The notes beneath the pieces are model-generated. The model was not told where the DNA came from. It worked only from the letters and a program-made list of their open reading frames with translations, and ran no database searches. This document shows, piece after piece, positions 5,401-29,400 of a stretch of DNA of 64,000 bases. The position numbers and the translations under genes were made by a program. The first letter of the stretch is position 1. Each line of letters begins with the position of its first letter. The DNA is from Owenia fusiformis (Eukaryota > Annelida > Polychaeta > Sabellida > Oweniidae), in the NCBI GenBank assembly GCA_903813345.2, contig CAIIXF020000010.1, forward strand, positions 29,876,828-29,940,827, given 5' to 3'.

Positions 5401-8400
5401 TAGGGTTATATGTCACAAAAGCAGGAATACATCTGTTAGGTGCTAGTGTTTAGACTTGATATTTACGCAGTTCTCTCACTGAAATCCAAGACAACTATTT
5501 CCATAATATTTCTGAATTTTTCTTATATAGTCTCTCAGTATTTTTTCAATGTTATAAATGTTTATATATGACTATACATTTATCCAAAAATATGTACTAA
5601 AATGTACAGTTAAACTTGTTAAGCGAAACACTTTTCTGAGTCAAGTGGAGCAAATCCTAACACTTTTAGCAGAACCAAGAGTGTTCCATTTACACAGGTT
5701 TCACTGTAAAACTCAAATATTTATATATTATATGAAAATAGTTTCTTGGATTTTTTGATTGTGAGAATTGAAAACTGCGTAAAGTGCACAGCGACCTGTC
5801 GTGATACCTTTTCATCATGTATTCCCAAGTGATGCGCCGTGGATGCAGCAATAGTCACCGTGGATGACATCTCAGGCGTGATGAAATGCGTATTGAGCAA
5901 TGTGGTGAAGATCCCTTGTAATTCATTTTCGCTGGAAATAACATAATGCATGCTCAATTTGAAAATGGTGATGCCACAATGACTAATATCTCAATCTATC
6001 ATTACTGAGGACAGAATCTTTTGAGGACAGATGCATCAGTAATTTTTCAGAAAAACTTTGTAAGAGAAAAGGTATGTGACCAAGAATCTTTAATTGACTA
6101 ATTAAAACACATTGGATGTATTTAGCTAAACAACAATTGAGAAACACTAAAGCTTTTTTAACATTGTATTTTCTTACCTTGGGTATGGGCACCCAAATAC
6201 AGCAAAATGCCTGAGCAGCCTCTGACTAAGTTTGGGTACAGTTGCTGTACAGTTGGGGTTGACAGTTGTGACGTAAGTAACATTTTTGATGTATCGCCAT
6301 GTGTGTGTGATTGGATCGTAGAATCCTCCATCGTCAATATGCTGTCTTACCAGCTCTGTTGCTGTCTGGTTTCCAAACTCATCGACCTATGGGAAAATAA
6401 AATGAATTAACAATACAGAAGCAGATCTTGAGGCTGACGAGGGGGGGCAAACTTTTAACTGGGACAAAATATTTAGCCATTCTTCAGTTTGGGCCAATTT
6501 TCAGATAAATCTAAAACAAAATGCCCACCTTAGGCTCGGAAATGTTGGTTTGCTTTTCACTGTAACTTTTTCCAATTTTTTTTGCTAACGAAATTGTCAT
6601 TTATCCCCTCCGCTAATGAAATCAACTTCGCTCCTTCACAACACTAGTGAACTTTGAGCACCATACCTGTGAGAGATTGAGATCATCAACCAGGCACATC
6701 AATCTTTTGTTGCCCTTAGGAACATAAGTTCTCCCGTGTTTCCATTCTGTTCTCTCATCTAGGCGCTCACATAGTAACTTAGCATTTGTGAATCTGCAAT
6801 ACAATAGAGATTCAGGTATGAACTATGAATCATATAGAAGATTTTTAATTTGCTCTTTTAGACAAATCTTGATATTATTTCTTTCTCTACCCTGAGTATT
6901 TACATAACTCCTGTGCCTGTTTCAATTTAAATTTCTTTTTTGAAAAGATAAGCATTTATAATCACAATTTTTTAACATGCCTTATGCAGTGTTTATTTCT
7001 TGCTAATTCCACTCCTTTCCACTCTATTTTGCATTTTTAAAACATGGCCACCATAACATTTTTCTCGTGACAATTCTAATATGAATATTTATTCATAAAA
7101 ATCACAATTATTTCTACAGGCCTCTTGTCTATTTCACTGACCTATTTGTTGTTATAGTAAGAGCTAAGACCTCAGCCACCTCTCCTGAACATACTGTTCT
7201 GATTCTATCAGTCACTATAGATGTCTTCCCGCAACCATTGGGGCCCACAAGCATGACAGGTTTTCCAGCATCTGAGAGGATCCCCATCATGTATGTCAGT
7301 TGCTGGAAAATTTTTAAAATCAGTTAGACATGCCATAGTATATTCTTAAGTTTGTTACCATGAACAAATGCATTTGGCCATGCGAACTGGTTGTCATCAA
7401 TTCAATTGTAATGACCAGATTCTTTCTGACCCCCACCTGCCAAGAGACACATGATAATTACAATAAAAACTTAAAAAAACTTTTTAAATGCAATAAACAC
7501 TAAAAACTGGATTTCACTATCATACTTTGACTGTGCTTTCATACCTTAACATTTGCATTGTATACAAAAGCCTCTGGTGTTATAATAAGTTGAGACATTG
7601 CACATAAAAGAGAAACTATAAAGTGAGTCCATACAGTTCGGATGATTCTCTTACTGTTATTAGGGTTATATCTATACATACCTCAGTATTGACATTATGT
7701 ACAAAGGCCTCTGGGGGAATACCATAATGTGGGGTTGCACTATACGCTGGTACAAGTTCTGTCCACTTGATGAACTCATGACTCTCTTGGTCCACCATGT
7801 AATCAAATACCTGAAAAAAAGAAGTTAAATGTATGAGGACATAATGTTTAAAAATGCAATATAGAGTGAAAAAGAGAATTATTTAGCAATGAAAAGAAAC
7901 ACAAATGGTTTATTTAAATTTTAAGAAAAATTCTATTTAAAAAGCATTAACAAATGGATATAAAAAACTTTCTTGACCAGAAGAGTTAAAATGTATGTTT
8001 TTACAGTTGACATTCTAAAATTATACCCCATTATTTAAAGACAGGTATTACATGGCATAATTTAGCGTCTGACTTACAGAGCCACCTATTGGGTATTCTA
8101 TGTGTTTCTCGAATGTTCGTCTCCACCACTGACTAAAGGGTTCCCTGTACTGGACTTCCAAAGTTCCACCAAATGCCCAAATCACCGCGAGAGTGAAGTA
8201 TCGTTCATACTCTGTTTCTGATAGGTCAGGATATATCAACATCATACTCTGAAATAATTACCATATATAGTCAAACACAATTCCCTATCCATTAAAACTG
8301 TTTTATGCTTAAAATTCCATTACTGTATCAGCCATGGAGAATAAGTAGTAATAACGACATCTTTCTAAATGTAATGAAAAAACATGATAAAAAAATTAGC

Positions 8401-11400
8401 CCCAGAGGGCAGCACTTACATCCATTAGTGCCGTCATAGTGCTGATCATGTTTTCTTCCGTCTGAGGAATCACACGTTTATAATGTGGCAGCAAACGTCC
8501 AGTCTTGGCTGGGCGTGGTTCCAACATGGGTGGACGACAACATTGGGTCAGGTAGTTCACAGTCGCCATTATGTAAGTGTCAACGAATGCCTGTAGCATA
8601 TCCCGATCTGAGCTGTTCTTTCTGGCAAGCCATTGGGCAAGCATTAACTCCCATCCGACATCACTCCGCTGCATCGCCATGACGCCAACATTGGCCAATA
8701 CAGAGGGACTCAGGTTGGATATACTCTCCATCTATTGAGAAAAATGTAAAGTTATTTACAGAGATTATTGTCCTTCAAACAGAGAACTCAAATATACAGA
8801 GTATCATCTTCCAACTTTCAGATATTTAGATCCTAAAACAGTTATCAATTCAAGAAAAATCTCTTGGAGATTTCTCAAAACTTGAGTTTTATCAATGAAA
8901 CATTCATTACATAAACTGTCGTGTTTTTTTGTTTCCATTGTTGATATAAACTTTTATTAAGAAACAAATGTATAATGGAATACATGTACAAATTATCATA
9001 CCTCCCAAACAAATCTGAGTGTGTCAGAGACATTGATCCTCTCATTGTTGCCCATGACAATGGCCCCATCATTGTGCAACATTGCAGACATTAGCTCCAT
9101 CTGGCGGGGGTCCAACTAAAACAATAGTGAAATAATTCAAACATTTTGAACAAAAATGAGCTCAATCAACTAAAAACAAAATATTATTGAATTCTATTGA
9201 ATTTAGATGATATTCCAATCTAAAATTATCATTATCAATAATTTTACAAAACAACTTAAAACAATTTCATGGGTTTAGCTAATATAATACAGAATAATCA
9301 AAATTCAAAATATACTAATGCTCAAACTAAAATGATGGTACAAGATATTTAGCATGGATCTACATGACTGTTTAAGCATGTGTAGAAAAGAAGTAGTAAA
9401 ACCTAATAAATCAACACTAACAAGGATCTGGAATCATTTTAAGGTAAATGTTGCATTATATATTGTATCAAACTTACATTTCCATCCATTTGTAGAATCT
9501 TGATTACTGGCTTAATATTCAGTTCATAGTTTGCCTTTGAGTGCTGAATACAGAACTTCCTCAATAAACTTGCCATAAGTCCATCTCTCCACTCCCTATT
9601 AAACAAATATATATAAACAGTAAAGTATCAAAATGTATGACAAAATGGCACCAACTGGTTAGTGCAAATAGCTAAAAAAGTTGGTAGGGAAACCAGCCAA
9701 TTCTGCTTCTAATTCATGCAGTTCTAGATGAAATGACAAAAATTGTTGATTCTAGTCTGTATAGAATTTTGCTGAAATTACAGTGATCAAATTTCAAAAT
9801 TTTGCTGGTTCATGGACATACCGTGTTTTGGGGTCCCAGTGCCCCAACAAGTCCTCTGACTCCACTGCTTTTGTGAAAACAGATTGAATGTTAATGATTT
9901 TTCCTCTTTCCCTCTCAGCCAGAGCGAATGTCTTGATGCAGTCTGTTTTTCCACAGCCAGGTGGCCCACATACTATGATCTGAAGCAAAAATATATGTTG
10001 CATTCAGATAGTCTCAAAGCCAAACTATCATATGTAGTAAAAATATATGTTGCAATCAGATAGTCTCAAACCAAAACTGTGTTATGTAGCAAACATATAT
10101 GTAATTGGATAGTCTCATATCCAAATTATGATCTGCATTAGAAAATATATGGTGTCTAATCAAACATATACATGTAATTAACTATGATCATTTATAGTGG
10201 AAATCTCAAATTCTAGGTTTGGACAGATATTACTGTACTTACTGTCTGATGTGCAGTGTTAAGCTGTGCCAATTGGGCTACTCTAGCTTGGAATGCTGTA
10301 CCAGGAAGGAGACCAAGGTTACTGGTTGCTATGGCAATTGCATCCTCTAATTCCTCTAGGACCTGTTTGTTAGTCTGGTCCAGTAGAGCGCTGAACCTGG
10401 TTGGAGCCGCAGAAGCAAGGCTTACTACAGGAGTGTTCAAGTTGAGAGTTTCTGCAAATGAATTAAGTTTCATGGATAGTATGAATTTATGTATTGTGTA
10501 ATGTTTTGGCTTTGACCATTAAAATTAAAGTGAAATGATTAATATGTGCATCTGAATCCTCAATTATTCCAAAAAATTTTATGAATAAATTTATACCTCT
10601 GAAAGTTGGCATATGGGCTGACATTCGACTTTTGGCTTTATTCAACCGAGATTGTGACTTTGACATCTTAGTCGGTGACCTTGACTCAATATCCATATCA
10701 GGGCTCCCTCTATCAACTAATCCTCCAAAGTTCATTGGAACGTTAACCCCTTGCCATAAATCAAAGGTCAAGGTCGTGAAAATGGAGGCATCTCTGGCTT
10801 TCATCCTCGGCATAAAGCTGTTGCGGAGAGCCGTCACTAGCGCCTCCGATTCCATCTGGAGTGTCTCTTCCGCAATTTTATCAATCTGCTCGGGATCCAT
10901 TTGTCCTTGATCTGCTTCATCTTTTTCACCTTCAGTTGTACGTGGTTTATCACGAGTGACCTTTACTGGGGAGGCTTTAGTGGATTTTTCTACATGCTCA
11001 CAAATAAATTTGTCCAAGATGGCGCCAGCCTCAAAGACAACATATTTTAGAGTTTGTAAACTCCAGCCATGCACGCCATCGTTTTCATCATAACCTGGAA
11101 TTCAATAAAGTCATCGTTTTGACACAGTATAATGTACAATCTAAACCTGAACACTCCCTTGACTGCTTGTCAAAACTATTTGAACCAGCAGGTGTCCGCA
11201 GGTGTTCACATGTAAATATCTTTTCACCTGCATTTGCATTTTCTTGACAAAAAGCATTCTGAATCTTAAATACACAGACAAGATGTGGCTAGAGTAATCC
11301 ACAAGGGTTCAAGCAAAAACAATAATTCTTACCAAGGTTAACGTTGCTAGTGATGGGTGAGTCTGTTCCAATAAGTTTCCTACACATCTCATACAACAGT

Positions 11401-14400
11401 GTAACTTTATGGGCCAACTCTCCAGCATTAAGAAAACCTAAGAAATAAAAGATTTGAGCATCAGTCACATTTGCAGTTGTACAGGGGCCATAGGTACACA
11501 AATGTAAAAAGTCTACGTCGTATATCTTAAAGTCTACATACATCGTACTGCATTTCCTTGCATTTTATGCAGCATCTTTAACATAAATCAAATCCTTTAT
11601 TGTCAAAGTATAAGAGTTTATGTATACATTATGTATAGGGGACACCAATATTTGTGATTAATTGGGTCTGCAATGCATCACAATTTAATATTGAATATCA
11701 GAAGTCTTCTAAAATCATTGTCAGTACCTTGACTTGCAAGCATACACTCCAGGGTCAATCTCATATCCGGCCTCATTATAGCTATTGCTCTGAACTGGTT
11801 TAATATTGTAGCAGGCAGCTTGGACAATCTGAAACATAATGTGGGGGTTACATGTTGCAATCCAGGGGAAATGTGGGGATAATAAATCCCAGGATAAATA
11901 GGATGTTTTGTTTCATTATAACTATCCCTGAACTGGTTTACATATACATAATACAGGTGGAGAATAAAATATGTAAATACCTTGAGTTGAAGAGTAGTAA
12001 TTTCTCTGGATTGCCAGATTCTGCCTTCAGTGATGTTTCAATTGTTGCAAAACATGCTCCAGTCAATGAAAGTGACACCTTGAAAAGAAATTTCAATTAT
12101 TCCATATATTTTCAATTTTTCCATGTGTTTTTCTATATAATTTTTTCGATTTTTAAATTTTATTATTATTTTTTAAGTTTTGAAAAATCCATTTGAACTT
12201 GAGTTTACCACTAACTACATGGCATATTATATATTCAATTACAATGTCAATTGCCAACTATAAAACACTTTATTATTTTCTCTCTTACATTAAAAGTTTA
12301 TATCAAAACATTTCTATTTTTTTCAAAGTAATATTGACATGCTACAATTACATCCTAGACACTGAATAAGAACCCCCAAATTCCTTCATTTTTTCTTGAT
12401 GTTTTCAAAAAGTCTATAATAATGTTTTGATAATAATATTTTTACCTCTTCTGTACTAATGATGACATTTGCCTTTCCTGCTTTGATTGCATCAAGCACA
12501 GTTGACAAATACTGTGCACAGACACTCAACACAGCGGGACTCAACACATTCAGATTGTTTAAGCCAATCCATGCTCCTGGAAAAACAATGTTTGATCAAT
12601 ATAGCATTTTTAAAGAAAAATTTGCAATAACCATGAGGTAATTTACTCATGCCAAAACCCAAATCAGAACTTTAGAAGCTGAATAGGTAAGCAGTTTTCC
12701 TGGAATTTTGTTGTTAAGGTTAATGTGGTGCCCAGCCTACCCAGATCTAAATCATTCTGGTAAAAACATTAAAACAAATTTTTTGCTCAACATCATTACA
12801 GAACAAAAGGTGATCTATGGAAAACCTCGTAAAACACATAAAATATTTTTAAAACTGAAATATGAATTTGGCTTAGCAATCATGTCTTGAAAAATACTTT
12901 TCAGGTTCAATATAATAAATAACTCTTGAAACTGGGATAGAACATCAATAGAACAAATGTCTTTGGGGTTGTAGGGATTCTCAGTTTCATATTAAGGTGG
13001 AATCAGAAAAACTACGACAAGATTTAAAAAATATTTTTCAGATATTAGTATAAAGGTGATAAAGAACCTAGTGATTTGCTAAAATTTAAAATTAAAATCT
13101 GTTTTTTCGAATCCTATCTTATTAGTTAAATAGATGGCATTGCTGATGTATTACAATTAAGTTTTGTTGAATTGAGGGAGAAGAAGTGTTAAAAGATAAC
13201 ATTTTATTTGGTTTAATGATTAACTTATCAACTGCATATAACATTGATAAAGATAAAATGAATCAAAAACTTTTAAAGTTTAAAAACTGTTTAAAGATTA
13301 AGGTCGCATCACATGATATTTGTGCTAACTAAAGTACAAATCACAAAAATGGCGTCAGTAATTGGAGATCGTCATAAGGAAGCTCTTACATGTGGACTGT
13401 GTCTGGACACTCTTTCTGAACCGAGGACATTACCATGTTTACACCAATATTGTTTGAAGTGTCTACATGATCTTGTAGAGAAAATAGGGCTTAAAGAAGG
13501 GAGCATCAATTGCCCTGAATGTCGTCATGTATGCTATGTGCCGCAACAGGGAGTGGCAGAGTTCAAGGTGAGCCCTACAATTACCTTCCTCTTGGATGCC
13601 TATAAGGATATCAACCTGACCCAGGAGCCAGAATGTAGCACATGTCGTGAAACAGATGAAACACACATCCCGGCTAAAGTCAAATGCCTAGATTGCAACA
13701 AGAAGTTGTGTAGAAGATGTTGTAAATTGCATGACTCATTTATGCAAGGTCATAAGACACTTGAACTTACAGGGGATAGCGCACATGATCTACAAACTGC
13801 ACTTCAGTCGATAAAAGAGCGTACTGTGTACTGCCGAAAGCACCCTGCTAAACCACTGGAGATCTACTGTAAGGTGGACAAGGTTGTGTTGTGTCAGCTA
13901 TGTTATACATTAAAACACACGGGTCATGATGCTGAGGATATTAAAGAAACAGCTGCTAAGAATATGAAGCCAATCGGGGCATTGATAACACAAGGTAAAG
14001 GACTTTTGGATATATATGAGCAGGCCATTCAAGATACACAAACCTATAAAAGTCAACTGGAACAAAATGCAGAAGATGTCACAGCAAACATTAACAATTA
14101 TATGAACACACTGTTTCAAGCTATTCGCAAGAAGTTTAAGTCTTACACAGATCAAGTGGCGAAAGAAAAGGAAACCAATGTGAAGCAAGTCATGTCCCAT
14201 CTCGGTCACCTGCAGCTCCAGAAATCCATCACTGAGGGCCAGGTCAACAAATTCTGCACCATCGTTGATCATGTTCATCCTGTAGAACTAGCTGGTCTAA
14301 TAGAACAGATCAATGACAAGGCTGAGCAATGGTCCCAACAACCAAAACTTGAGTTTAATGGTAAAATAGCAATGGACTTCAAAGAGGGAGTAATCAAGGA

Positions 14401-17400
14401 TGATAGAATTGAGTTTGGAAAGGTCTTAGTCAACAAAGGACTTGAAATTAATAAGAGAGTTAAGGTTCCATTAAAACTTATGACTAAGCCAACAGTAAAA
14501 AAACATGAACTTCAATCAGAAGGTATTATCAACTTAATCTGCACATCTGTAGGAGATTGTGTAGTAACAAATGAATCATCACAATGGAGTCAAAATTCAA
14601 AAATATATAATGCAAAATATAAGCAAAAAAGAGATTTGCATGAAAAATATGAGAATGTAACAATCATGAATGATGGCAATATAGCATTTACTGATACTTC
14701 CAATACCATCAGCATCCACAATCAATCTGGGGACCATGTGCATGATATCATTTGCAGAGAATTAAAGAATCTGTCTGGGATAACTGTGAACAGTGAAGGT
14801 GATCTGATTGTGTGTGATCTGGATACCAATACAGTACATCATGTAGATCCAACTACTGGGGCATCCAAATCTACATCAAAGCCAGGCATGTTCGAGTTGC
14901 CATACTATGTAGCATATAATAGAAATGACACAGTTATTGTTAGTGACTATCGTGGCCACTGTATAAAAGGAATAGATAAGAATGGTGAGGAACTATTCTC
15001 ATATGGAGAGCTAGGTGATGGTGATGGACAACTTCGATATCCCTATGGCATATGCACTGACCAGGCTAACCATATATTTGTGGCTGACAGTTGGAACAAA
15101 CGGGTCCACATGCTAAGTGAAGATGGAAAGTTCATCCAGCATGTTCTAACACATGAGGATGGTTTAGAGTATCCACTTGCTGTAGCAATCAACAATGAGG
15201 GACAACTGCTGGTTGGAGATAGCAATGGCACCCTCTTCATTGTCAATTACAGGGAATAAGGTAAATACCAACTCATTTCAAGTTACAAGTTACAACATGT
15301 ATTAACTTAAAATAAAGGGATATGACAAGACAAGACTTTTACTCTTTAACTCATTGCTGGCCAAAGCTATTTTGGAGGTTTCTGCTGGTGACTGGCCATT
15401 TTGATAAAAAATTGGTCAAAATGGCATGTTTTCATATTAGCATCAAATGAAGTGAACCACCCTCTGTGCTATGTTTTATGCCATTGTGAACCCCATGAAA
15501 ATATATTGTTCAGCACACCGAGGTATTATGGGTTGGTCTGAGATACGATTATGACATCATAGACAAGATATGTCGGGGTTGGTCAGCGATGAGTTAAAGT
15601 AAAAGTTGTATGTTAGGAATTGAGGATGTAGAAAATAAATTTAATGGTGGGTGAGTTTAGTAAAATACTTCCTTTATAAGAGATATATGATAATATTAGC
15701 GCAAAAGTTATTTCTCATAAAAATATGTGCAAGAGAGCTTAAATGTGTAATTTGTTTCAGCACAGAAGTGACTGCAATATATGATATCATTTGATCAGTG
15801 ACAAGAGTCCACAGAGACCAAGATAGAAGACAAAAGTGAGCTATGAACTGTAATTTACATTACAACTATTGAAATCTAAAACTTAAATTAAAGTGAGTCA
15901 TGGATATTACAACTAAAAATATCATAAAATGGATTAACACCTCTTAGTTAAAAAACCAACATCAGTGAAAAACATTATAAACTAATTAGATATACTTTAA
16001 AAAAATAAAAATAATATATATTGTACTGTGAAAAAACTATTAATATAGGAATGTGCTCATTCCCACGCTCCATTTCCAATGAAAACTTTAATTGTTTATA
16101 TGGAACATAGGGTAGGTACTAATCAGACCTCCTGATAGCATAATTTTGCTCAGTAGTATCATAGCTATTAAGCCCATGGCAATATGGATGAGCAGACAGC
16201 AGTATGATCAGCTAAACACCTATCCTAAAATCCTCACAATGCATGTATGTTGAGGTCTGATTATGCCATTTGATAAAGATTATGTATTTCATTCTCATAA
16301 CATCCATACATGTATCATACACTTTGAGGTCTAAGTTATCATTTTCTGTTAAGAAATGTTTAAACACCATCTTTCTCCTGTAATTAAAAATGAAAATGTT
16401 ATTTATTTCACTTCTTGTTAACTACAGAAAATATTGTACCCTAAAAATATAAAGACTCTTGAAATATAGGCCATCACAGGCACGATGCATTCTATATTTG
16501 ACTTGAATTGTTGAATAAGTTTATATCATTATACTGAAACAGAAGTTTATGCAAAGAAAGATCAGACAAAATCAAAACATTATCCTCATGTCTAGTGTGT
16601 TCACATTTCATGATTTTTCCAAAGAATAATCTTAAACATATATTGGAGAAAAAATAATGAATGGCCATTCAATATGGTGAAATTCAGCACTCATTGGAGA
16701 GAATGTCCAACTCGTGGTGAATATCATCATATTGAATGACCTATCATTATTTATTCCAATTCAAACATAAAAAATTAAAATATTGTTTAGTGAATTGGGA
16801 ATTGAGCTCCTTGAAATAACCAAACTTGCTGTTATTTTCACCATTCCCAGGTATGACGTCACAATACAACACAATATGAAGCAGATCGAATAGATGCACG
16901 GTCATGCATTTATGGAGAATTAGAGAACAGCTATGCTGCAATCTGATTGTTTGAGAAACTCAATTAAAGAACTGTCATGTTTGAATTGTTGATTAAGTAC
17001 ATAATTCGTTGTTATTATGAATCACTCAAAGGTTTGCATATGACTCTCTTTTGTGGGAAGGGATGGTGATTTGACAAAATAAAAATTTGGATGTCAAATT
17101 CCCTATCCTGGAAAGAACATAGCGAATTAATTTCCTCTCCTATTAGGAGCACCTTGTTGAGGTGCAGAATCTTTCTGGAGACATTTTTGAAAAATTGCTA
17201 TACCTACCTGTGTTATTTGTTTTATTTTAAAATGAGACATGTGTGTAAACCCTAATATTTTCAAGTAAAGTGTATCCTGATATTTCAAGAAAAAAAATAT
17301 TCAAAATGGTCACCCTTCCATATTTTCATATTTTTCCATACTCCTTCTTCAAGTTTGTCAACAGTATTGGATTACCTGATCTTACACTAGATGCAACAAG

Positions 17401-20400
17401 GATGTTTTTCACACAAAAACAATACAACTTGTTCAGCTCCTGACATTGTAATAGTATTTTACCTTAAGAAAGATAAATAGATGGCATATGCTACATATCT
17501 TGATTACTTTTTGGATATACATGTACACAGTCCTATGGGCTATTGCAAGAGAGGGGTAACACAACTTCCCAAATTCAATATATGAGCAAAACCTGGGGTT
17601 TTAAAAATTGAAGAAAAATGTTTCCAGTATACAGATTCCAAGAAGAATCTTATATTTTTCATATACGATAATTTAGAGAAACATCTAATAAATGATTATT
17701 GTTCATAATATAATACAAAATGGAATTGATCATACTTATGGCAATAATAAAAGTTTGTATTCACACCTATCCTTCATAATAATTTAAGTGTGCCATCATT
17801 TCATAGATGTAGCTTCTAAATAATAAATAAATAAATGAAATTATAATAAACTGATTTCAAGCAAATTAATGCAGATCTATTTACTATTGCCTAAAATTTA
17901 AAAGGCTTTTTAAGATCAAGGTTGCAATCACACAATACCCATGCTTTACTGATCATTATGCTTTGAAATGGTCCTGTGGATAAAACATTCTCTGCAAATA
18001 TGTGTTCTTTCAATGATTTATTGCTTTTAACTCAAGTCTTTGAATAACAAATAGAAACAGAATCATGTGTTTTATTAGCAACGTGATATCTCATGTGGTT
18101 TTATTGAATTCCAATGGGCTGAATGAGTGCCAGGTCATAGTGTTCTAAGTTATTGACTAGATGTTTAAGAATAGTGTTGCTGTAGAGAGTAATGTGTAAA
18201 GTTAAAATGGCGTCAGTAACTGGAGATCATTATAAGGAAGCTCTTACATGTGGACTGTGTTTGGACACTCTATCTGAACCGAGGACATTACCATGTTTAC
18301 ACCAATATTGTTTGAAGTGTCTACATGATCTTGTGGAGAAAATTGGGCTTAAAGAAGGGAGTATTAACTGCCCTGAATGTCGTCATGTATGCTATGTGCC
18401 ACAACAGGGAGTGGCAGAGTTCAAAGTGAGCCCTACGATTACTTTTCTCTTGGATGCCTATAAGGATATCAACCTGACCCAGGAGCCAGAATGTAGCACA
18501 TGTCGTGAATCAGATGAAACACACATCCCGGCTAAAGTCAAATGCCTAGATTGCAACAAGAAGCTGTGTAGAAGATGTTGTAAATTGCATGACTCATTTA
18601 TGCAAGGTCATAAGACACTTGAACTTACAGGGGATAGCGCACATGATCTACAAACTGCACTTCAATCAATAAAAGAGCGTACTGTGTACTGCCGAAAGCA
18701 CCCTGCTAAGCCACTGGAGATCTACTGTAAGGTCGACAAGGTCGTGTTATGTCAGCTTTGTTATACATTAAAACACACAGGTCATGATGCTGAGGATATT
18801 AAAGAAACAGCTGCCAAGAATATGAAGCCAATCGGGGCATTGATAACACAAGGTAAAGGACTTTTGGATATATATGAGCATGCCATTGAAGATACACAGG
18901 TCTATAAAAGTCAACTGGAGCAAAATGCAGAAAAGGTCACAGCAAACATTAACAATTATATGAACACACTGTTTCAAGCTATTCGCAAGAAGTTTAAGTC
19001 TTACACAGATCAAGTGGTGAAAGAAAAGGAAACCAATGTGAAGCAAGTCATGTCCCATCTCGGTCACCTGCAGCTCCAGAAATCCATCACTGAGGGCCAG
19101 GTCAACAAATTCTGCACCATCGTTGATCATGGTCATCCTGTAGAACTAGCTGGTCTTATAGAACAGATCAATGACAAGGCTGAGCAATGGTCCCAACAAC
19201 CAAAACTTGATTTTAATGGCAAAATAGCAATGGAATTCAAAGAGGGAGTTATCAATGATGATAGAGTTGAGTTTGGAAAGGTCGTAGTCAACAAAGGACT
19301 TGAAACTAATAAAAGAGTTAAGGTTCCATTTAAACTTATGTCTAAGCTAACAGTGAAAAAACATAAACTTCAATCAGAAGGTATTAATGACTTAACCTGC
19401 ACATCTGGAGGAGATTGTGTAGTAGCAAATGGATCATCACAATGGAGTAAAAATTCATCAAAAATATATAATGCAAAATATAACCAAAAAAGAGATTTGC
19501 ATGAAAAATATGAGAATGTAACAATCATGAATGATAGCAATATAGCATTTACTGATAGATCCAACACCATCAGCATCCACAATCAATCTGGGGACCATGT
19601 ACATGATATCATTTGCAGTGCATTAGAGAAGCTATATGGGATAACTGTGAACAGTAAAGGTGATCTGATTGTGTGTGATCTGAACACTAAAACAGTACAT
19701 CATGTAGATCCAACTACTGGGGCATCCAAATCTACATCAAAGCCAGGCATATTCCAGTCGCCATACTATGTAGCATGTAATAGAAATGACACAGTAATTG
19801 TTAGTGACTATATAGGCCACTGTATAAAAGGAATAGATAAGAATGGCAAGGAGATATTCTCATATGGAGAGGAAGGTGAAGGTGATGGACAACTTCGATA
19901 TCCCTATGGCATATGCACTGACCAGGCTAACCATATATTTGTGGCTGACAGTGGGAACAAACGGGTCCACATGCTAAGTGAAGATGGAAAGTTTATCCAG
20001 TATTTTCTAACACATGAGGATGGTTTGGATTGTCCACTTGCTGTAGCAATAAACAATGAGGGACAACTGCTGGTTGGAGATTACAAGGGCAACCTCTTCA
20101 TTGTCAATTACAGGGAATAAGGTAAATAACAACTCATTTCAAGTTACTCTAATACAACAATGTACATTATATAATCACCTATGTATCTTTTATATCAACA
20201 AAATACAATGTTTGATTAGAAATGCTTAATTATGAATAATATGGCAGATATATATGATAATATGAACACAGTTATTATAAAATATGAGCAAGCAAGCTAA
20301 AATATGTAATATTTGTTTCAGTAAAGAACTGCCTGTGAAACATGATGTCAAATGATACAAATGGTACTTTGGATCAGTGACAAAAGACAACAGGGAGTGA

Positions 20401-23400
20401 GATAGAAGACAATAGTGAGTGACGTGAGTCATTGAATGTAATTCATGTCACAGTAAATGGAAATAAAAATAAATGTGTAATATACTTTCATGATATCACT
20501 GGTGATCCACTCGATTACGCTGGTTAGTGAAACGCTTCATTTCGGTAACAAAATGTTGGAATGTCAAATGTAGGCAGAATCCCCATGACATTTTTTCTCA
20601 CAAACGTGTATCAGTATCATATGTTTTAGAACACCTCACATTACATAAACGGTTTGAGTTAAAAGTCCAGATCTTAACTGTTTTTCGAAATACTGAGTGT
20701 TTATGTAACTTAAGTGAGGAATTAAATCGATACTGATACATGTTTGTGATAAAAATGTCATGTGAATTCTGCCTACAACCTGTGAATTAAGGAAAAAAGA
20801 AAAATCGTACCTTTGACGTTCCGACATTTTGTTACCGAAACAAACCGTTTCGGTAACCAGCATAATCGAGTGGATCACAAGTGATATCATTGGTTTGCTC
20901 TGGGTTATCATAGCTCAGGCATTGGACTTTATGTATCAGTGAACAGTGTCTTGTTAATACTTATACCTGTGAATAAGCAATAACAAACTCACCTGTAGTT
21001 GCAAACCCCTTGAATATATCAGCCAGCATGTAGCTATCTAGTTGTTGCGTACAATTGAACATGTATAGAGGCTGGCCTAGGGCACGGCTTAATTCATGGA
21101 TGGTGGCGAGTTTACCTGCCCCCTAAAAAATAATTTCATGACATGAATATATTAGTTTGTTGTGTAAATGTGATAGAGAGGCCTAGGCCAGCATGGCTTC
21201 ATTTTATAAATAGTGGCTTTTAAATGCAGAAACTTCTAGAAAAATGGACAAATTGAAAATGAATACTAAAACATGGTTAATTCTTGTATGCAGTTTTCAG
21301 AACTTTTTGGTTTGATTAATTTTCATAAAAAAGATTTCTTTAAGAGATTATTTACAAATTGTAACAATGTAAATATTATTTTAATACACTCCAATATTAT
21401 ATGTGAAAGCAACCAACCCATTGAAAGGTATATTAAATAAATCACAGTCAAGTTCCACTTACACAAGTTTTACTGTTATCACTGTATATATAATCTACAT
21501 TAGTCTACATGTACTTTTTTGTTATTTATAATAAATCTTTATTTTCACATATTATTTTACAGGTCATTAATGTTGTTTACTAAAGGAGAGAGAGAAAGGA
21601 AGATTACATTGATTTATGTCACTTTGTATAAACTGATGATATTAACATGTACTTACAGATGGTCCCATACATAGTCCTCCTACATTTGCCTTCACAGCTT
21701 GCGTCAAACTAACAAATGCCTTCTCTGTCATTGGCGTAATTACTTCCCGTGTGCATGAACCCATATACTCAAACCCATAGTCAAACTCTGCATCAAGGCA
21801 CTTGACAGAAATCGTCAAATCCTCTGTGTTGAATTTATACTGGAGTTGGGATCGCCAGTCAAATGCTTCCTCAAGGTTTGTGTCTGATTCGTTGGTTTTC
21901 TCAATTAAACGAACCAGCAGGTCCCTTTGGTGAGTAAGGACAGCTTAAATAACAAAGTAATATAATTTGTTGTGATCTTCCAAATCCTTTTCTTTAAAAG
22001 ATATAATGTCTAAAATGAAATAATCATATAGAAATCATTCAAAATTATATTTCATTTTTTAAAGGACTTACATATAAGACTGCTTATTTTCTGGATCTGA
22101 CTCGGGAAGAGCATCAGTTTCAAATCTGTTTCCTCGGATTGTTGCTTCTCACGATTCTGTTGAATTTCAACCTCAAGGTCATGGTCACTCTTTTTGGGTA
22201 TAAGCACAACCGCACCAAGATTCATTGTATCTATTGGTTCACTAGTCTGTGGTTCCAGAAGTGCTGAAAATATAGTAAAATAAAATGTAAACCTTTTGGT
22301 TGTCTGCTGAAGTAATGTTGCATTATGGGAAAGGATTTTTATTCCCAGGTGTATTGAAGGCAGCAAGATTTATTGTTTCTATTGGTTCGCTAGTCTGAGG
22401 TTCCAAAACAGCTGAAAATATAGTAACTATTTTGGTCATCTGCTGAAGCAATGTTGCATTATGGGAACGAATTTTTATTCCCATGTGTATTGAAGGCAGC
22501 AAGATTTATTGTTTCTATTGGTTTGCTGGTCTGTGGTTCCAGAAGAGCTGAAAATATGTCAATATTTTGGTCGTCTGCTGAAATAATGTTGCATTATGGG
22601 AAAGGCTTTTTAGACAGAATCAAAGCTTCAGTGCAAAGGTTCATTTAAACTAGTCAGATTTCAATTTTCCCTATGGGTAGAGAAACTCTACTAAACCTAC
22701 CCTCAGAGCCATCTGCATGTGAACCCTCCTCAGGTATCGTTGCTTGAGGGTTCTCAATTGTGAGGTCATAGACAGAGCCTCTGTTTGAAGTCCCGAACTG
22801 ACTCTTGCCCTTGTACGACGTGGATTGGGACATTGTCTCTCTTTCATTATCTTCCTTTTCTTTTTCTGGAATATCAAAAAGATTTAAATTACTTGAAACC
22901 ATATCATAGGGGGAATCATAGTTTTCTCTAAACGTCCTTGCTAAATATAGGACTTAAGCGATGTGTATAGCTTCAAGCATCATTGTTTGCTGTATTACTA
23001 ACTTCACCTCTTTTCCACTGTATTTTATATTTAACAGTTCAAAACATTTTTCATTTAAAAATGTATGCTTACCATCTGCTTCAAGCTTTGCCTTTTCTTT
23101 TCTTGCTCTTGCTTCTTTCTCATCTTCAAGTCCTTTAAGCATCATAACTGTTGCCTGGACACTGGAGTTGATCTTCACCAGTGCAACCTAGAACAGAAAT
23201 TATGGGATATATGTATTAACTATTTGGGATGCCTGTTTCTTGGACATTATACACCCATTGCAGCACTCAGGAAGATGTATGTATTTTTGTCTATAAAATC
23301 CAAATACCTTATCCTTGTTCAAATAGGGCTGAAGACAACATAAAATACAATTTAATCTCTCATTTGTACTCACCTGTAGAGCGTCCTTGTCTCCATTGTT

Positions 23401-26400
23401 CATCTGCTCAATGATCTCATTCACTTGTTGTGTCATTTGTATTTGGGTTGTCAGGCACACTACCTCAGCAACATGGTCCAAAGTCCATGATCTGAAATGT
23501 AAAATGAAACATTATCTTCCCCCATTTTTGAGGCAATCCCAATTGCATTCAGATTGATTAAATTGGTTTTACTGTAGAGAAGTTTTACTAAAACACTGGC
23601 AAAAAAACAAGCATGTCTAAAATTTTCCAAAAGCCAAATTAACAACACTGTTAATAGACTATTAGAAAATAAAAAAGGAACAAAATAATTAGTTATGCAA
23701 ACCTGGACCCTTGCTCTGCGGATTCTTCTTCTTGTTCAGCAGGGGTAGCAATACGACTGTCCTTCACTCTACTACTAGCTAGGCGGCTGCCGGATCTACT
23801 TCCTGCACGCTCTAAAACACGTCACAGCATAACACATTAATGATGGATAACAAAACCAGGTATTAAACATAAACAAAAGTATCGGGTCTTGCAACTTTTA
23901 TATTTTTGCTAGGTGATCATTAAAACCTGGGAATTGGTCTGCAATTTCAATATTTTTCAACTAATTTAGTGTGGTACTTATTAACGGTCAAAATAATATG
24001 GGAAATGCAATTCATTTCATAACTTAATGCAACTTTAAAGTTATAAACAACAATTAACAGAGAACCATCAGTATCAATAAAAATCCCATTTTAACAATAT
24101 TATTCTATAAGGAATCTTAATAAAATATCAATATTTATCAAAGATTTCAAAAGTTTTTTTAAGCCCTTCATGCCCCAATTTTACACAAAGTATTAACATG
24201 CAAAATGTCACGACCTGCCATTTGTTACAGATGCCGGATGCCAACCACCGTCACTCCGTCACAAAAAGTGGAGACCATAATAATTTTGGTGGTGACATAA
24301 AATGTTATTGAATGATATTGAATTTGGTATTTGCTTCCAAATGAAAGAATTAGAACCCTATCCCGAGAACCTTACCATCGATAGAACCTTTGTTTTGATT
24401 AATATATCCATTATATTATATTATTGTATATTAATATATAATTTTCTATAATCACCTGAATTAGCTGAATCTGCTGGATTAGTCCAAATAAAATAAATCA
24501 AACATATTAGTAATCATTCATTAGTTAATATTAAGACATTCCATATATTACACTCACATTATATACTGTATGTATATGTAATGGTATAGTTCACAATATA
24601 CATTTTGATTTTCAATTGTTAATTTATAGTTAATACAAGACAATATGCATGTCAAATATTATCAAAAACATAAATATTATGGGGCTGTTTTAAAAACCTG
24701 TCAGGGCTTATGGGTAAAAACAATTATGGTGCAAATATAATTAACTAGGTGCATACTAAATCTGGGTCAGATGTAACCAATCAGACTGGCAGATTCTATA
24801 GTCCAACTATGGGTAAATATGGGACTTGGTTTGCGGATTCATTTTTAAAAAGTAGGTTAAAAGCTATTGAAAAATCTTAACTACTGTATAGGTCATAGTA
24901 TAAAGCTCTTTCCACCTCAAACTATGGGTATATCATAAGCTTGTCTTTTCTATGGTGCATTCTTAAATAACTAAATGGAATGGAAGTAAAACTGACAAAC
25001 GGCTTCATTTCTCCACATTTTTCCACTATCCTCTACATTTTTCCTGTGGGAAAAGCAAGTAAAAACAGGATATTTCCTGATGTTACTTCATTGTTCCACA
25101 CTACAAATGGGAAAAAATTAAGAAAATTTATGGATAAAAGTGTGGGGAATTTAGTAAGATCACCTATGGGCTATCCTTAACTACTGGTCAAATGTCAACC
25201 TTTTATTTTTTCCAAAATTATGGGTGCGTTCTTAACTATGGGTCATATGTTAATAAAAGCTCATCAACTATGGGTTCACCTCTGTGACTGGGGGTATGAG
25301 ACCTAGAATTAGGACCATTGTCTCTAGGGGTCTGGCCTATACTGAAACTATTGCCTAATAACACAAACATATAAAATACAAAAGAATAAGTCAGAGTTAA
25401 ATACAGGCCTAAAGTATATTCGAGTGCAAAGGAAATATTTTAGAAGGGGGGAAAGGGGTAGATAGACTAAGGTAGCTCAATTGGTATAGTTCAGAGCTCA
25501 ACATTTTGAGTATGAAGCCATGAATCATCATACAATTACTGTTTTGTATGTCACTATGGTTACCATCAGATTCATTGCATATTGCGCAATCTAGCATTAT
25601 TTTAGCATATACAGCAACGAAAATGAAAACATTTTTCAAATATTCTTGATTTACATTTTTGTTGATATTATTATACTGCTTGAGCTACCTTTCAGAGTAT
25701 TTAGAATTTTGTAGAGGAAAAAACTTAAAAACTCAAAAGTTATTTCCCAAATTGGATATCGTTCATAGAAAAGCATGAATCTGTTGATTGAAATGTTCAC
25801 CTATGTTTGACCCTCTGGTGACGGGTCGGCTTCCTGATTGGCTCCCTAAACATATATGTATATGAATACATTATAAATGTAAACAAGCTACATGTATCGT
25901 GCATAGTGCAGACAGAAAAACCACATAACTCAATGTCTAAACTAAAAATAAAATATTTATGACAGAATCTACATTTAAAAAACAATAACAACAACAACAG
26001 ACAACAGATATTGTGAAAAAGTGAATCATCAAATTAGTACAAAAATAATAATTTTCATTATCGAAGGAATACCAACCTCGTCCTCCCTGTCTGCTTTGAG
26101 AGCGCGACTGGACTTGGACTCGCCTCGCCCCCGCACTGTGTATTTCACGTTTTGGAGGAGGTTTCTCCAGACCCATAGCTGTTGCTAGCTGGTATTGGAT
26201 ACCCTCCTTTATCGCTTGTAGGAATGCTGTCAACCAGCCTTCGATAGCTCCTTCACAGAGCACAGGCTGAAACACAACAATGGTATTCTTGAGAACAATA
26301 TAGGTATTTCAGCTCAATGTTGGTATTTCAATATATAAATGCCATTTAAGGAAATGTTCAATATATAAATGCTATTTAAGAAAATGTTCAATACATTAAT

Positions 26401-29400
26401 GCTATTTAGGAAAATGTTCAATATATAAATGCCATTTAAGGAAATGTTCAATATATAAATGCTATTTAAGAAAATGTTCAATATATAAATGCTATTTAAG
26501 AAAATGTTCAATACATTAATGCTATTTAGGAAAATGTTCAATATATAAATGCTATTTAAGAAAATGTTCAATATATAAATGCTATTTAAGAAAATGTTCA
26601 ATATATAAATGCTATTTAAGAAAATGTTCAATATATAAATGCTATTTAAGATCCATTAGAATGGTTTAACATAATATTAAACAAAATGGATATGTCATGG
26701 TGTTCCAACAACAAGGTTGTATTTATACATCTATCATTATTTTTATTTAACAAAGAAAAGATACAAAATGGAAGGCTGATACTTTACTTATCAGGAAATA
26801 TAATCTTCATAATGAAAATCAGAGGCAATAAGGATATACTTAGAGGTTATGTCACTATGACGTGAAATATGCCTGAGTTCTCCCAATATAGGCCGACCTT
26901 GGGAGGCTCTATATTTGGGCAAGAACGAAGGCATATTTCACGTCATAGTGACATAACTGATGTATTACATGCCTTTGTTCCCATGGTTACTTTGTATCAA
27001 TGACGTGACGTCATGATATTATCATGGTTATTAAAGAAATCTAATATCAAAACGAGGTAAGCGGGCTATATCGGGGTAATCGGGCAATATCGGTGGATAT
27101 AGCTCGCTAACTTTCCCATTGACTTCCATACAAATGCTTCGCTAGGTATGTAATACTGTAGTATATATACTATAGTAGATCATTCAACTATCACACAGAA
27201 AAATAACACCGACTTCAAAGAGACTCAGAGATGTATAGATCTATAAAGTCAAAATACATTGAATGTCTACAATTAATTCTAAGGCATGCTTCTTCAATGA
27301 ACCTTTCTACAATACAGCACAATACAAATTCTTAATAAATATAATGGACCAATGTTCCAATCTCAATGAATATTTGTAAAATAAATGAAAATTGATTCAG
27401 TGAAAATAGCATGCTTTACATTATTCTACATACTTTAAGAATTAAGTCATCAAGTTTTTCATCTAAAGAGACCTATAAGATAGGACATCTCATAATTTAC
27501 TCAAACCCTTCTTAGTTTATACTTCTAACTAACTGGAAAGACAGAATTGTCCCAAGATAATAAGGAAAGTAGCTAAATATCTTCTTCCTTTATAATAAGT
27601 AAACTAGCTACAAGGCCCCTTGATAATATGTAAAGTAGCTATATAGCCCCTTGATAAAAAGTGAAGTGGCTATATAGCCCCTTGGTAATAAGTAAAATAG
27701 CTATATACAGGTAGCCCCTGCATAATAAGTAAAGTAGCTACATAGACTCTTGACAATAAGAAAATAGCTAGATAGCCCCTGGATAATAAGGAAAGTAGCC
27801 ATATAGCCCCTTGGTAATAAGGAAAGTAGCAATATAGTCCCTTGATAATAAGGAAAGTAGCTACATAGACTCTTGACAATAAGGAAAATAGCTAGATAGC
27901 CCCTGGATAATAAGGAAAGTAGCCATATAGCCCCTTGGTAATAAGAAAAGTAGCTATATAGGCCCTTGATAATAAGGAAAGTCGCTATATAGCCCCTTGA
28001 TAATAAGGAAAGAAGTTATATAGATTCTTGACAATAAGGAAAGTAGCCATATATTAGCCCCTTGGTAATAAGGAAAGTCGCTATATAGCCCCTTGATAAT
28101 AAGGAAAGAATCTTGACAATAAGGAAAGTAGCCATATACTAGCCCCTTGGTAATAAGGAAAGTAGCTATATAGCCCCTTGATAATAAGGAAAGTAGCTAT
28201 ATAGACTCTTGGTAATAAGGAAAGTAGCTAGCCCCTTGATAATAAGGAAAGTAGCTATATAGCTCCTTGATAATAAAGAAAGTAGCTAGCCCCTTTATAT
28301 AAACCAAGGTAACTTAAGAACTAACGTAGATATTCAAGGAGGGGGCCATTGCAAATAGTATTTATCAAACCTGTCTCAAAGCTATCCTTTCTCCTAATAA
28401 ACTTCTGACACCAACTATCACCTGATTGTACACAAAATATGATGTCTTGAATATGTGATGAACTTGACATATGGTGATGTCATAAATATGTGATGATGTC
28501 ATAGATATAAATAAAAATGCATATACTATACATATTAATAGGATCTTATTAGTACTGATGCCCTTTTAGGGCCAAACGTACATCCGATATACAATTTTCA
28601 ATAACAGTAAAAAATAAAAAAGGATGGTATAACGTTTCTTGTTCCGTTTTGAATAAGCGCGTTAGACGATTGGGTTTACAACTGGTGAAATCACCGAACA
28701 AAGAACCAGACTTCAAAAAGATCATATTGAAACAAACAAGAATAAACATGGTATTAAAAATAGTACAATGGGAAAAACACATATTTTATTTTTCAAAAAA
28801 TATGCAAATCATTAGTGTGACCCAATTTAACAGAAGTATTGAGTCACTGCCCTCTATCTTTTGTCCCATACACATATAAATGAATTTGGGCAACACATGG
28901 TGCTTCATGCAAGGCTAACTTATCAAACATGCTACATTACCTGTTTCAAAGGAAGGCGTTCACCTAGAGCACTTTCTACACCCTTAAGTTGGAAGTTACA
29001 TCTGTCATTGTCGACCTCCTCATAAACAAGACTTCCAACATTTTCAAATAGCTTGTTGACGTACAGGTTCACTTGATTGACGTCATAGCCTGTAATATAT
29101 GTATAACGTGTATAATTGTTCAGTTATTTTCATTTATATCTAGAAGTAATGTATGTAGGGAGGTTGGGAAAAATGTTGGGATAATTCTCTATTATACACC
29201 AAACTCCACCATTCTTATTATCAGTTGACAAAAAAGTTCACATTTTCATTTACTTTTCATATTTATTAACAATGGTTAATTCTCTTGTTATTGAAAACAG
29301 GACTTCATATTCAATATTTTCAAGTAAGGAATAAACAAAATTTAAAAATTCTCACAGAATCTAAAATCCTAGCTGATTATTTTGGATAATATTGAAATTA

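What the first reader, a model, noticed from the sequence alone, without database searches (positions are those of the whole stretch)
11981..21943. A dynein heavy chain whose AAA1 ATPase site has lost every key catalytic group
AAA1 hydrolysis drives dynein movement. Here Walker A is GPSGAGKL (Leu for the Mg-binding Thr), Walker B DE is NN (GLNNLN), and the sensor-I NPGYAGR stretch is absent, yet about 3,700 codons around it are open and spliced in phase. So the gene is under selection but probably not a conventional motor: a pseudo-motor, a cargo or assembly scaffold, or a DNHD1-type protein.
Basis: partly seen in the sequence, partly recalled or inferred. Interest (0 to 1): 0.82.

Follow-up and report, generated by a model that had tools for sequence, protein, structure and literature searches.

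The report
Dynein gene with a dead engine
A genome, probably of an animal, carries a full-length relative of the outer-arm dyneins that power cilia, in which almost every residue needed to burn ATP at the drive site has been replaced while the rest of the machine looks maintained, so it is probably a structural, non-moving part of cilia; the best known comparable gene is human DNHD1.

Summary
On the minus strand the window carries most of a dynein heavy chain gene: in my model 105 exons, about 86 kb and 5,477 codons, of which 68 exons and 3,573 codons lie in the window; it leaves at the left edge and ends in a stop just past the conserved C-terminus. AAA1 reads GPSGAGKL / GLNNLN / TIETS where 15 of 15 canonical dynein genes of the same genome keep GPAGTGKT, CFDEFN and the sensor-I Asn. 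Two further losses were not in the finding: sensor-II Arg to Gln and the AAA2 arginine finger to Asn. Of seven catalytic side chains only the P-loop Lys remains. No canonical AAA1 piece lies in any minus-strand frame of 11-22 kb. Tail, linker, AAA3 site, stalk with microtubule-binding domain and C-terminus are recognisable. Five segments from tail to stalk match outer-arm beta heavy chains best; trees put the gene at the base of that class, not beside this genome's own beta gene. DNHD1 identity cannot be tested here, and two other non-canonical dyneins of the genome are rival candidates. Best reading: an old dead-motor relative of outer-arm beta, working as a static axonemal part. Function is inferred.

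The parts
56329..56464 (-). first N-terminal exon kept in the model (KMQVDERLRWLETRISSSL...); start codon not settled
   Evidence: exon model; low confidence
47574..54261 (-). tail, DHC_N1 region (exons 54068-54261, 53186-53676, 52660-52777, 49547-49738, 49210-49441, 48834-48953, 48199-48366, 47574-47756)
   Evidence: Pfam DHC_N1 141.3 and 175.6 bits on two pieces; best PDB match outer-arm beta heavy chain 7kzm_B, 276.5 bits, query residues 4-565
26077..38189 (-). linker region (DHC_N2 and preceding coiled part), exons from 38049-38189 to 26077-26266
   Evidence: Pfam DHC_N2 298.5 bits, E 9.7e-89; best PDB matches DNAH9 265.4, DNAH17 235.1, 7kzm_B 233.7 bits
21657..21924 (-). AAA1 exon 1, ends inside Walker A (...GLCMGPS)
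   Evidence: AAA_6 hit 34.8 bits
20993..21122 (-). AAA1 exon 2, rest of Walker A (GAGKL; Thr -> Leu)
   Evidence: AAA_6 hit 32.0 bits
12446..12576 (-). AAA1 exon 3, Walker B GLNNLN (Asp -> Asn, Glu -> Asn)
   Evidence: AAA_6 hit 27.5 bits
11981..12078 (-). AAA1 exon 4, sensor-I region TIETSLKAE (Asn -> Glu; NPGYAGR absent); weak splice-site scores
11728..11828 (-). AAA1 exon 5 (LSKLPATILNQFRAIAIMRPDM...)
11333..11437 (-). AAA1 exon 6
10597..11094 (-). sensor-II stretch SLQTLKYVV (Arg -> Gln) and a long insertion before AAA2
   Evidence: alignment
8420..10451 (-). AAA2: Walker A GPPGCGKT kept (exon 9822-9979); arginine finger VSRxG -> LANVG (exon 8420-8731)
5796..7302 (-). AAA3: Walker A GPNGCGKT (7142-7302), Walker B LVDDLN (6667-6793), VNP and RLLRHF (6178-6386) kept
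   Evidence: Pfam AAA_7 157 bits; alignment to DNAH17, 179.1 bits
876..1582 (-). AAA4 exons (GCPGRCIT; no P-loop lysine); the exon border between 1053 and 1348 is probably a few codons off in my model
   Evidence: Pfam AAA_8 100.5 bits
373..539 (-). last exon of the model inside the window; stalk, microtubule-binding domain, AAA5, AAA6, C-terminal domain and stop codon follow on C10 down to about 29,847,458
   Evidence: L001-L003, exons, PDB match of stalk and MTBD 122.1 bits

Best explanation
The gene encodes a full-length dynein heavy chain that split off at or near the base of the outer-arm beta class and has lost AAA1 ATP hydrolysis. SHOWN by sequence: tail, linker, AAA modules, stalk with microtubule-binding domain and C-terminal domain are recognisable; six of seven catalytic side chains of the AAA1 site are replaced (Walker-A Thr, Walker-B Asp and Glu, sensor-I Asn, sensor-II Arg, AAA2 arginine finger) and only the P-loop Lys is kept; the AAA3 site keeps its motifs; no close second copy was found. 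INFERRED: without a working AAA1 site the ring cannot close around ATP, so the head should stay in the nucleotide-free-like state, linker straight and stalk strongly microtubule-bound. The protein would then act as a static tether or spacer on the doublet, held by a beta-type tail, perhaps taking the place of an active beta head in some outer arms or serving in assembly of the axoneme, with the kept AAA3 site a possible regulatory nucleotide site. Rough confidence by step: catalytically dead at AAA1 0.95; beta-class neighbourhood 0.8 (I had first written 0.85; lowered because the AU test does not separate inside from just outside that class); older than the split from the mammalian lineage 0.7; maintained protein-coding gene 0.9; static structural role in cilia 0.5.
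For: Motif losses against 15 of 15 canonical genes of the genome and against two solved beta chains. Whole-gene architecture. Best PDB matches are beta-class chains in five segments: tail 276.5 bits, linker 265.4, AAA1-2 244.7, AAA3-4 323.7, stalk/MTBD 122.1. Linker tree: the six other canonical genes sampled form a UFBoot-100 group that leaves the window gene with the beta chains, and the window gene falls outside the DNAH9/DNAH17/own-beta clade (100). AU test rejects a sister relation to the genome's own beta gene (p 6.2e-18 for linker+AAA1, 5.5e-4 for linker alone). Constraint: of positions identical in DNAH17 and algal beta, 117 of 233 (linker), 79 of 163 (AAA1), 40 of 106 (AAA2) and 54 of 129 (stalk/MTBD) are kept; the stop lies four codons after the conserved C-terminal WI..G.AL.L. 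[quoted passage not shown] with AAA1 empty the motor is microtubule-attached with a straight linker.
Against: No expression, protein or localisation data. The C-terminal segment (AAA6/CTD) matches weakly and not to beta chains best: 8glv_JG 53.9 bits, algal beta 26.3, DNAH17 23.2. In the tail an inner-arm I1 chain (148.1 bits) scores as high as DNAH9 (148.4). AAA4 lacks the P-loop Lys, and the whole protein evolves fast. The loss is not significantly concentrated on catalytic motifs: 7 of 22 invariant motif positions kept against 25 of 42 other invariant AAA1 positions (Fisher p 0.064). In the AU tests a tree with all sampled beta chains as a clade without the window gene is as good as the best tree (p 0.55, 0.59), and a clade with the animal beta chains is not rejected (p 0.16, 0.26); in the AAA1 tree its pairing with algal beta has support 55. 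The long branch makes attraction to the base possible. The exon chainer accepts only open frames.
Confidence: 0.55

Rival explanations
1. It is the orthologue of vertebrate DNHD1, the orphan dynein-related gene, and works as DNHD1 does in building cilia and sperm flagella. (Not exclusive of the best explanation.)
For: DNHD1 is a dynein-related gene coding for 4,753 residues, called a 'ghost gene', an orphan, maybe becoming a pseudogene; zebrafish dnhd1 knockdown reduced cilia number and length without impairing ciliary motion, which fits a non-motor. The window gene seems older than the split from mammals, so a vertebrate counterpart is expected unless lost.
Against: No DNHD1 sequence was available here and none is named among the PDB chains listed (lists capped at 60). 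Two further non-canonical dyneins in the genome (C7, C11) compete for the same identity and look more orphan-like. [quoted passage not shown]
Confidence: 0.3
2. It is a decaying pseudogene that happens to be still readable.
For: Fast evolution (branch 1.8 substitutions per site in the AAA1 tree, 1.3 in the linker tree); DNHD1 has been suspected of the same.
Against: No stop in the model; about 723 new stops are expected per unit of neutral change over the 5,719-codon model, so even 2% neutral divergence would give about 14 (that model holds some doubtful exons and the chainer prefers open frames, so this overstates the case). The six AAA1 exons carry coding signal (0.156-0.257 log-odds per codon against a mean of 0.246 elsewhere; off frame 0.077 and 0.099). 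AAA3 motifs and the C-terminus are kept.
Confidence: 0.1
3. Alternative exons supply a canonical AAA1, as may happen in another dynein gene of this genome with three AAA1 exon copies.
For: C9:7.08 Mb has three copies of the AAA1 core exon, so the mechanism may exist here; the intron 12,577-20,992 is long.
Against: No canonical motif or half-motif in the minus-strand frames of 11,000-22,000; no further AAA_6 hit in the gene; the window has no N; sensor II and the arginine finger are lost too.
Confidence: 0.02
4. AAA1 still binds ATP through the kept P-loop lysine and the head works as a nucleotide-bound, hydrolysis-dead switch, or AAA3 drives a reduced cycle.
For: GxxGxGK kept in AAA1; AAA2 and AAA3 P-loops kept.
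Against: Mg-binding Thr and Asp, sensor-II Arg and the arginine finger, which hold the phosphates and close the site, are all gone.
Confidence: 0.1

Closest known systems
Outer-arm dynein beta heavy chain class (DNAH9, DNAH17, and by recall DNAH11; algal and ciliate beta)
   Same: domain order, DHC_N1 tail, linker, AAA3 motifs, stalk and microtubule-binding domain; best PDB matches in five segments
   Different: AAA1 catalytic set lost; long insertions; attaches at the base of the class rather than beside the genome's own beta gene; C-terminal segment does not match beta best
DNHD1 (vertebrate dynein heavy chain domain 1)
   Same: dynein-derived heavy chain of doubtful motor function, extra to the 15 human heavy chain genes (passages)
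   Different: sequence relation not tested here; DNHD1 residues at AAA1 not seen
AAA1 Walker-B mutant dyneins used in the laboratory (Glu to Gln)
   Same: hydrolysis-dead AAA1
   Different: those are used to look at the ATP-bound state; here binding residues are lost too, so a nucleotide-free-like state is expected
The two other non-canonical dyneins of this genome, C7:1,528,542-1,539,035 and C11:18,681,310-18,687,806 (AAA1 parts)
   Same: altered AAA1, sensor-II Arg lost
   Different: C7: GPSGTGKS, FDQTD (Glu to Gln), Asn to Asp; C11: GQTGVGKT, LDDFQ (Glu to Asp), Asn kept; little class preference

Membership tests
Dynein heavy chain | tail/linker, AAA1-6, stalk, C-terminal domain in order | tested here: met
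   DHC_N1, DHC_N2, AAA_6, AAA lid, AAA_7, AAA_8, MT, AAA_9, Dynein_heavy, Dynein_C over their cut-offs on spliced pieces; AAA2 by alignment
Conventional (AAA1-driven) dynein motor | complete AAA1 catalytic set (Walker A Lys/Thr, Walker B Asp/Glu, sensor I Asn, sensor II Arg, AAA2 Arg finger) | tested here: not met
   1 of 7 kept
Outer-arm dynein beta class | closest sequence relationship of tail, linker and motor to beta chains | tested here: met
   best PDB matches in five of six segments; not met for the C-terminal segment
Outer-arm dynein beta class | nested inside the beta clade rather than just outside it | tested here: inconclusive
   it attaches at the base; trees with it inside or just outside are not rejected
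Outer-arm dynein beta class | located in outer dynein arms | not testable with these tools
   no protein data
Recent duplicate of this genome's own beta gene | sister to the C9:30.94 Mb gene | tested here: not met
   AU p 6.2e-18 and 5.5e-4
DNHD1 | orthology with vertebrate DNHD1 in a tree | not testable with these tools
   no DNHD1 sequence held; not named among the PDB chains shown
Pseudogene | broken reading frame | tested here: not met
   5,477-codon model without a stop, ending at the conserved C-terminus; the chainer prefers open frames

The most novel reading that the evidence does not exclude
Animals carry an ancient, conserved line of dead-motor outer-arm dyneins (of which DNHD1 may be the vertebrate remnant): full heavy chains whose drive site was switched off long ago while the AAA3 regulatory site, microtubule-binding stalk and beta-type tail were kept, so that some axonemal positions hold a passive, strongly bound head instead of a motor.
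Probability: 0.3. Interest if true: 0.82.

Novelty: new variant of a known kind. Interest (0 to 1): 0.6.

Why it matters
A review of the field states that AAA1 carries the complete catalytic set in all dynein isoforms (passage), and DNHD1 has been described as a ghost gene or pseudogene in the making (passage). A full-length, apparently old heavy chain near the beta class with six of seven AAA1 catalytic residues gone would suggest that a dead dynein can be kept for a long time, would give DNHD1 research a comparison outside vertebrates, and would make testable whether cilia use passive dynein heads as brakes, spacers or assembly parts.

Tried and rejected
Rejected: sister relation to the genome's own beta gene (AU); canonical alternative exons; mis-splicing of Walker B (the joined exons align residue by residue with GAWGCFDEFN). 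The idea that catalytic residues were lost preferentially was tested and is only a trend (p 0.064). A shared origin of the three non-canonical dyneins is not supported: in the AAA1 tree the C7 and C11 genes pair weakly (68) and the window gene goes with algal beta (55). Shared introns gave little: of the window gene's 5 AAA1 introns mapped one (before VSLS, phase 0) coincides with others, the C11 gene and one canonical gene (L16).

Led nowhere: relatives in viral contigs (5 pattern matches, 0 confirmed) and in prokaryote genome contigs (73 pattern matches, 0 confirmed); paper searches for a described inactive dynein (one unrelated paper; none recognised in the listings); Kollmar 2016 is not held; one search did not help to name the organism. 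Passages of PMC2239267, PMC12338079 and PMC4047620 were seen; the first says that extremely divergent dynein-like sequences were left out of its tree, so genes like this one may have been passed over. AlphaFold was not used because a spliced protein is not read letter for letter from the DNA.

Corrections and dropped rows: some of the 15 canonical AAA1 models contained chaining artefacts that I cut by hand before alignment (L6, L8, L10, L14, L18), as was a 159-residue insert of the C7 gene; in L8 one of three alternative exons was used; in L11 I also replaced an artefact between MNP and YAGR by one G, so for L11 that G is my edit (its Asn, Walker A and Walker B are as read), and it may be one of the 22 motif positions counted. 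L16 has NPAGKGYGGR. Three models (L9, L11, L17) lack the start of the domain. For the AAA1 tree 80 more residues of the C7 gene were removed. The linker tree holds 6 of the 14 other canonical genes. Doubtful model exons were left out of the queries, and a low-complexity insert of the linker was left out of the tree.
Full report
THE OBSERVATION. The window is G000:C10:29876828-29940827, in an unnamed 498-Mb genome of 525 contigs. A home-made exon chainer (codon log-odds plus splice-site weights) run on the minus strand of the window and then of the window plus 40 kb of flanks (flanks) finds a dynein heavy chain gene that enters at about 56.4 kb and leaves at the left edge. After removing six exons that I judged to have no counterpart in known chains the model has 105 exons and 5,477 codons; 68 exons and 3,573 codons lie in the window. 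The last exon runs to a stop four codons beyond the conserved WI..G.AL.L end. Small errors remain, for example at the AAA4 border between 1053 and 1348 and in the N-terminal exons.

AAA1. The six AAA1 exons are 21657-21924, 20993-21122, 12446-12576, 11981-12078, 11728-11828 and 11333-11437, with AG/GT borders. The spliced domain scores 207.2 bits against Pfam AAA_6. Aligned with 15 canonical AAA1 domains of the same genome (loci, models), it reads GPSGAGKL for GPAGTGKT, GLNNLN for CFDEFN and TIETSLKAE for TMNPGYAGR. 15 of 15 canonical genes keep GPAGTGKT, CFDEFN and the sensor-I Asn (hand edits told in Tried and rejected). Beyond the finding, sensor II reads SLQTLKY where canonical genes read GLRAIKS or alike, and the AAA2 motif [ST]PATVSRxG of two solved beta chains reads SPSVLANVG. 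In the algal beta chain this Arg lies 407 residues after the Walker-A Lys, the spacing that I recall for the yeast arginine finger (Lys1802, Arg2209; recalled, from no call). So of seven catalytic side chains only the P-loop Lys is left. AAA2 keeps GPPGCGKT; AAA3 keeps GPNGCGKT, VDDLN, VNP and RLLRHF; AAA4 has no P-loop Lys.

CONTROLS. No canonical motif exists in the minus-strand frames between 11,000 and 22,000. Because an intron cuts Walker A in this gene I repeated the scan with half-motifs: only GAGK of this gene, FDE at 19462 (opposite strand of a TRIM-like gene, not FDEFN) and PGY at 11098 (unrelated) appear. The genome-wide AAA_6 search gives three hits in this gene, on degenerate exons. 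A tail exon finds itself at 100% and two other places at 32% and 24% identity, and the AAA1 query finds its own exons and distant paralogues, so no close second copy was seen. The intron 12,577-20,992 holds two plus-strand intronless RING/B-box/NHL genes, through whose opposite strand the chainer at first read.

CLASS. PDB searches by segment give as best chains: tail 7kzm_B (outer-arm beta) 276.5 bits, other outer-arm beta chains 231.9, two unnamed putative chains 174.8 and 167.9, DNAH17 163, DNAH9 148.4, inner-arm I1 beta 148.1, DNAH10 103; linker DNAH9 265.4, DNAH17 235.1, 7kzm_B 233.7; AAA1-2 7kzm_B 244.7, DNAH17 225.5; AAA3-4 DNAH17 323.7, DNAH9 283.5; stalk and microtubule-binding domain 7kzm_B 122.1, DNAH17 108.9. 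The C-terminal segment is the exception: 8glv_JG 53.9 bits, algal beta 26.3, DNAH17 23.2. In the linker tree (13 sequences, 423 columns) the six other canonical genes sampled form a 100% group; the window gene stands with the beta chains but outside the 100% clade of DNAH9, DNAH17 and the genome's own beta gene. AU tests on linker+AAA1 and on the linker alone reject a sister relation to the own beta gene (p 6.2e-18, 5.5e-4). They do not reject a clade with the animal beta chains sampled (0.16, 0.26), a place beside the algal beta chain (0.47, first data set only), or a place just outside all sampled beta chains (0.55, 0.59), which is in effect the best tree. The branch is long, so attraction to the base is possible.

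CONSTRAINT. Positions identical in DNAH17 and algal beta are kept at 117 of 233 in the linker, 79 of 163 in AAA1, 40 of 106 in AAA2 and 54 of 129 in stalk/MTBD. AAA1 as a whole is thus no more worn than the rest. Among columns invariant in the canonical genes, 7 of 22 motif positions are kept against 25 of 42 others (Fisher p 0.064): a trend only. Coding signal of the six AAA1 exons is 0.156-0.257 log-odds per codon, mean 0.200, against 0.246 (sd 0.102) for the other exons and 0.077 and 0.099 off frame. About 723 stops are expected per unit of neutral change over the earlier 5,719-codon model; the chainer's preference for open frames weakens that argument outside homology-anchored exons.

NOT ALONE. 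Two further genes have altered AAA1 sites: C7:1,528,542-1,539,035 (GPSGTGKS, FDQTD, LDP; a 159-residue insert) and C11:18,681,310-18,687,806 (GQTGVGKT, LDDFQ, VNPG); both lack the sensor-II Arg. Hits to DHC_N2, AAA_7 and Dynein_C near both suggest full-length chains; DHC_N1 hits were listed near the C11 gene, not near the C7 gene. Their AAA1 domains show little class preference in the PDB. The AAA_6 search thus gives 18 gene loci, 15 canonical and 3 not (my grouping of the 88 matches; a lower bound).

MECHANISM. From the review PMC4879348 (passages): with an empty AAA1 site the motor is microtubule-attached with a straight linker; catalysis needs Walker A and B, the sensors and the arginine finger. 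Losing these predicts a head held in the nucleotide-free-like state: a passive, strongly bound element with a beta-type tail. That the protein sits in the axoneme, or in an outer arm, is inference from class alone. Zebrafish dnhd1 knockdown lowered cilia number and length without impairing ciliary motion (PMC9749982, passages), which shows that a dynein-related chain can matter for cilia without an effect on motion, but not that DNHD1 is this gene.

COMPARISON WITH WHAT IS KNOWN. DNHD1 is described as a ghost gene, orphan and possible pseudogene in the making (PMC8754002, passages) and as a 4,753-residue protein whose mutations go with sperm flagellum defects (PMC9916431, passages). I could not obtain its sequence. 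Searches for a described catalytically inactive dynein listed none that I recognised as such; the library misses most subscription papers, and Kollmar 2016, which per PMC8754002 treats DNHD1, is not held. I therefore rate this a new variant of a known kind.

Noticed in passing
G000:C9:7082562-7082861, 7083728-7084045, 7087077-7087388 (L008): One canonical dynein gene carries three copies of the AAA1 core exon (profile positions about 56-164), each with FDEFN; possibly mutually exclusive exons that swap the motor core.
   Followed up: partly
G000:C7:1528542-1539035 (L020, L021): A second non-canonical dynein with Walker-B Glu replaced by Gln, sensor-I Asn by Asp, sensor-II Arg by Ser and a 159-residue insert in AAA1; Glu to Gln is a change used in laboratories to block hydrolysis.
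   Followed up: partly
G000:C11:18681310-18687806 (L022): A third non-canonical dynein with Walker-B LDDFQ and sensor-II Arg lost, but Walker A GQTGVGKT and sensor-I Asn kept.
   Followed up: partly
window 13295-15259 and 18186-20120, + strand: Two intronless RING/B-box/NHL genes (654 and 644 aa, 586 of 643 aligned residues identical) lie in one dynein intron on the opposite strand.
   Followed up: partly
G000:C4:3132508-3135806 and 3169657-3174372: Dynein C-terminal exons matched twice about 37 kb apart, a likely partial duplication of the 3' end of one dynein gene.
   Followed up: no
C10 about 29866636-29867876 (window -10191 to -8951): Long acidic, Glu-rich stretch encoded between the stalk and AAA5 of the window gene; not compared with other chains.
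   Followed up: no
window about 47074-47313: Short tandem repeat reading YSTVQYSTVQ on the minus strand, in an intron of the gene.
   Followed up: no
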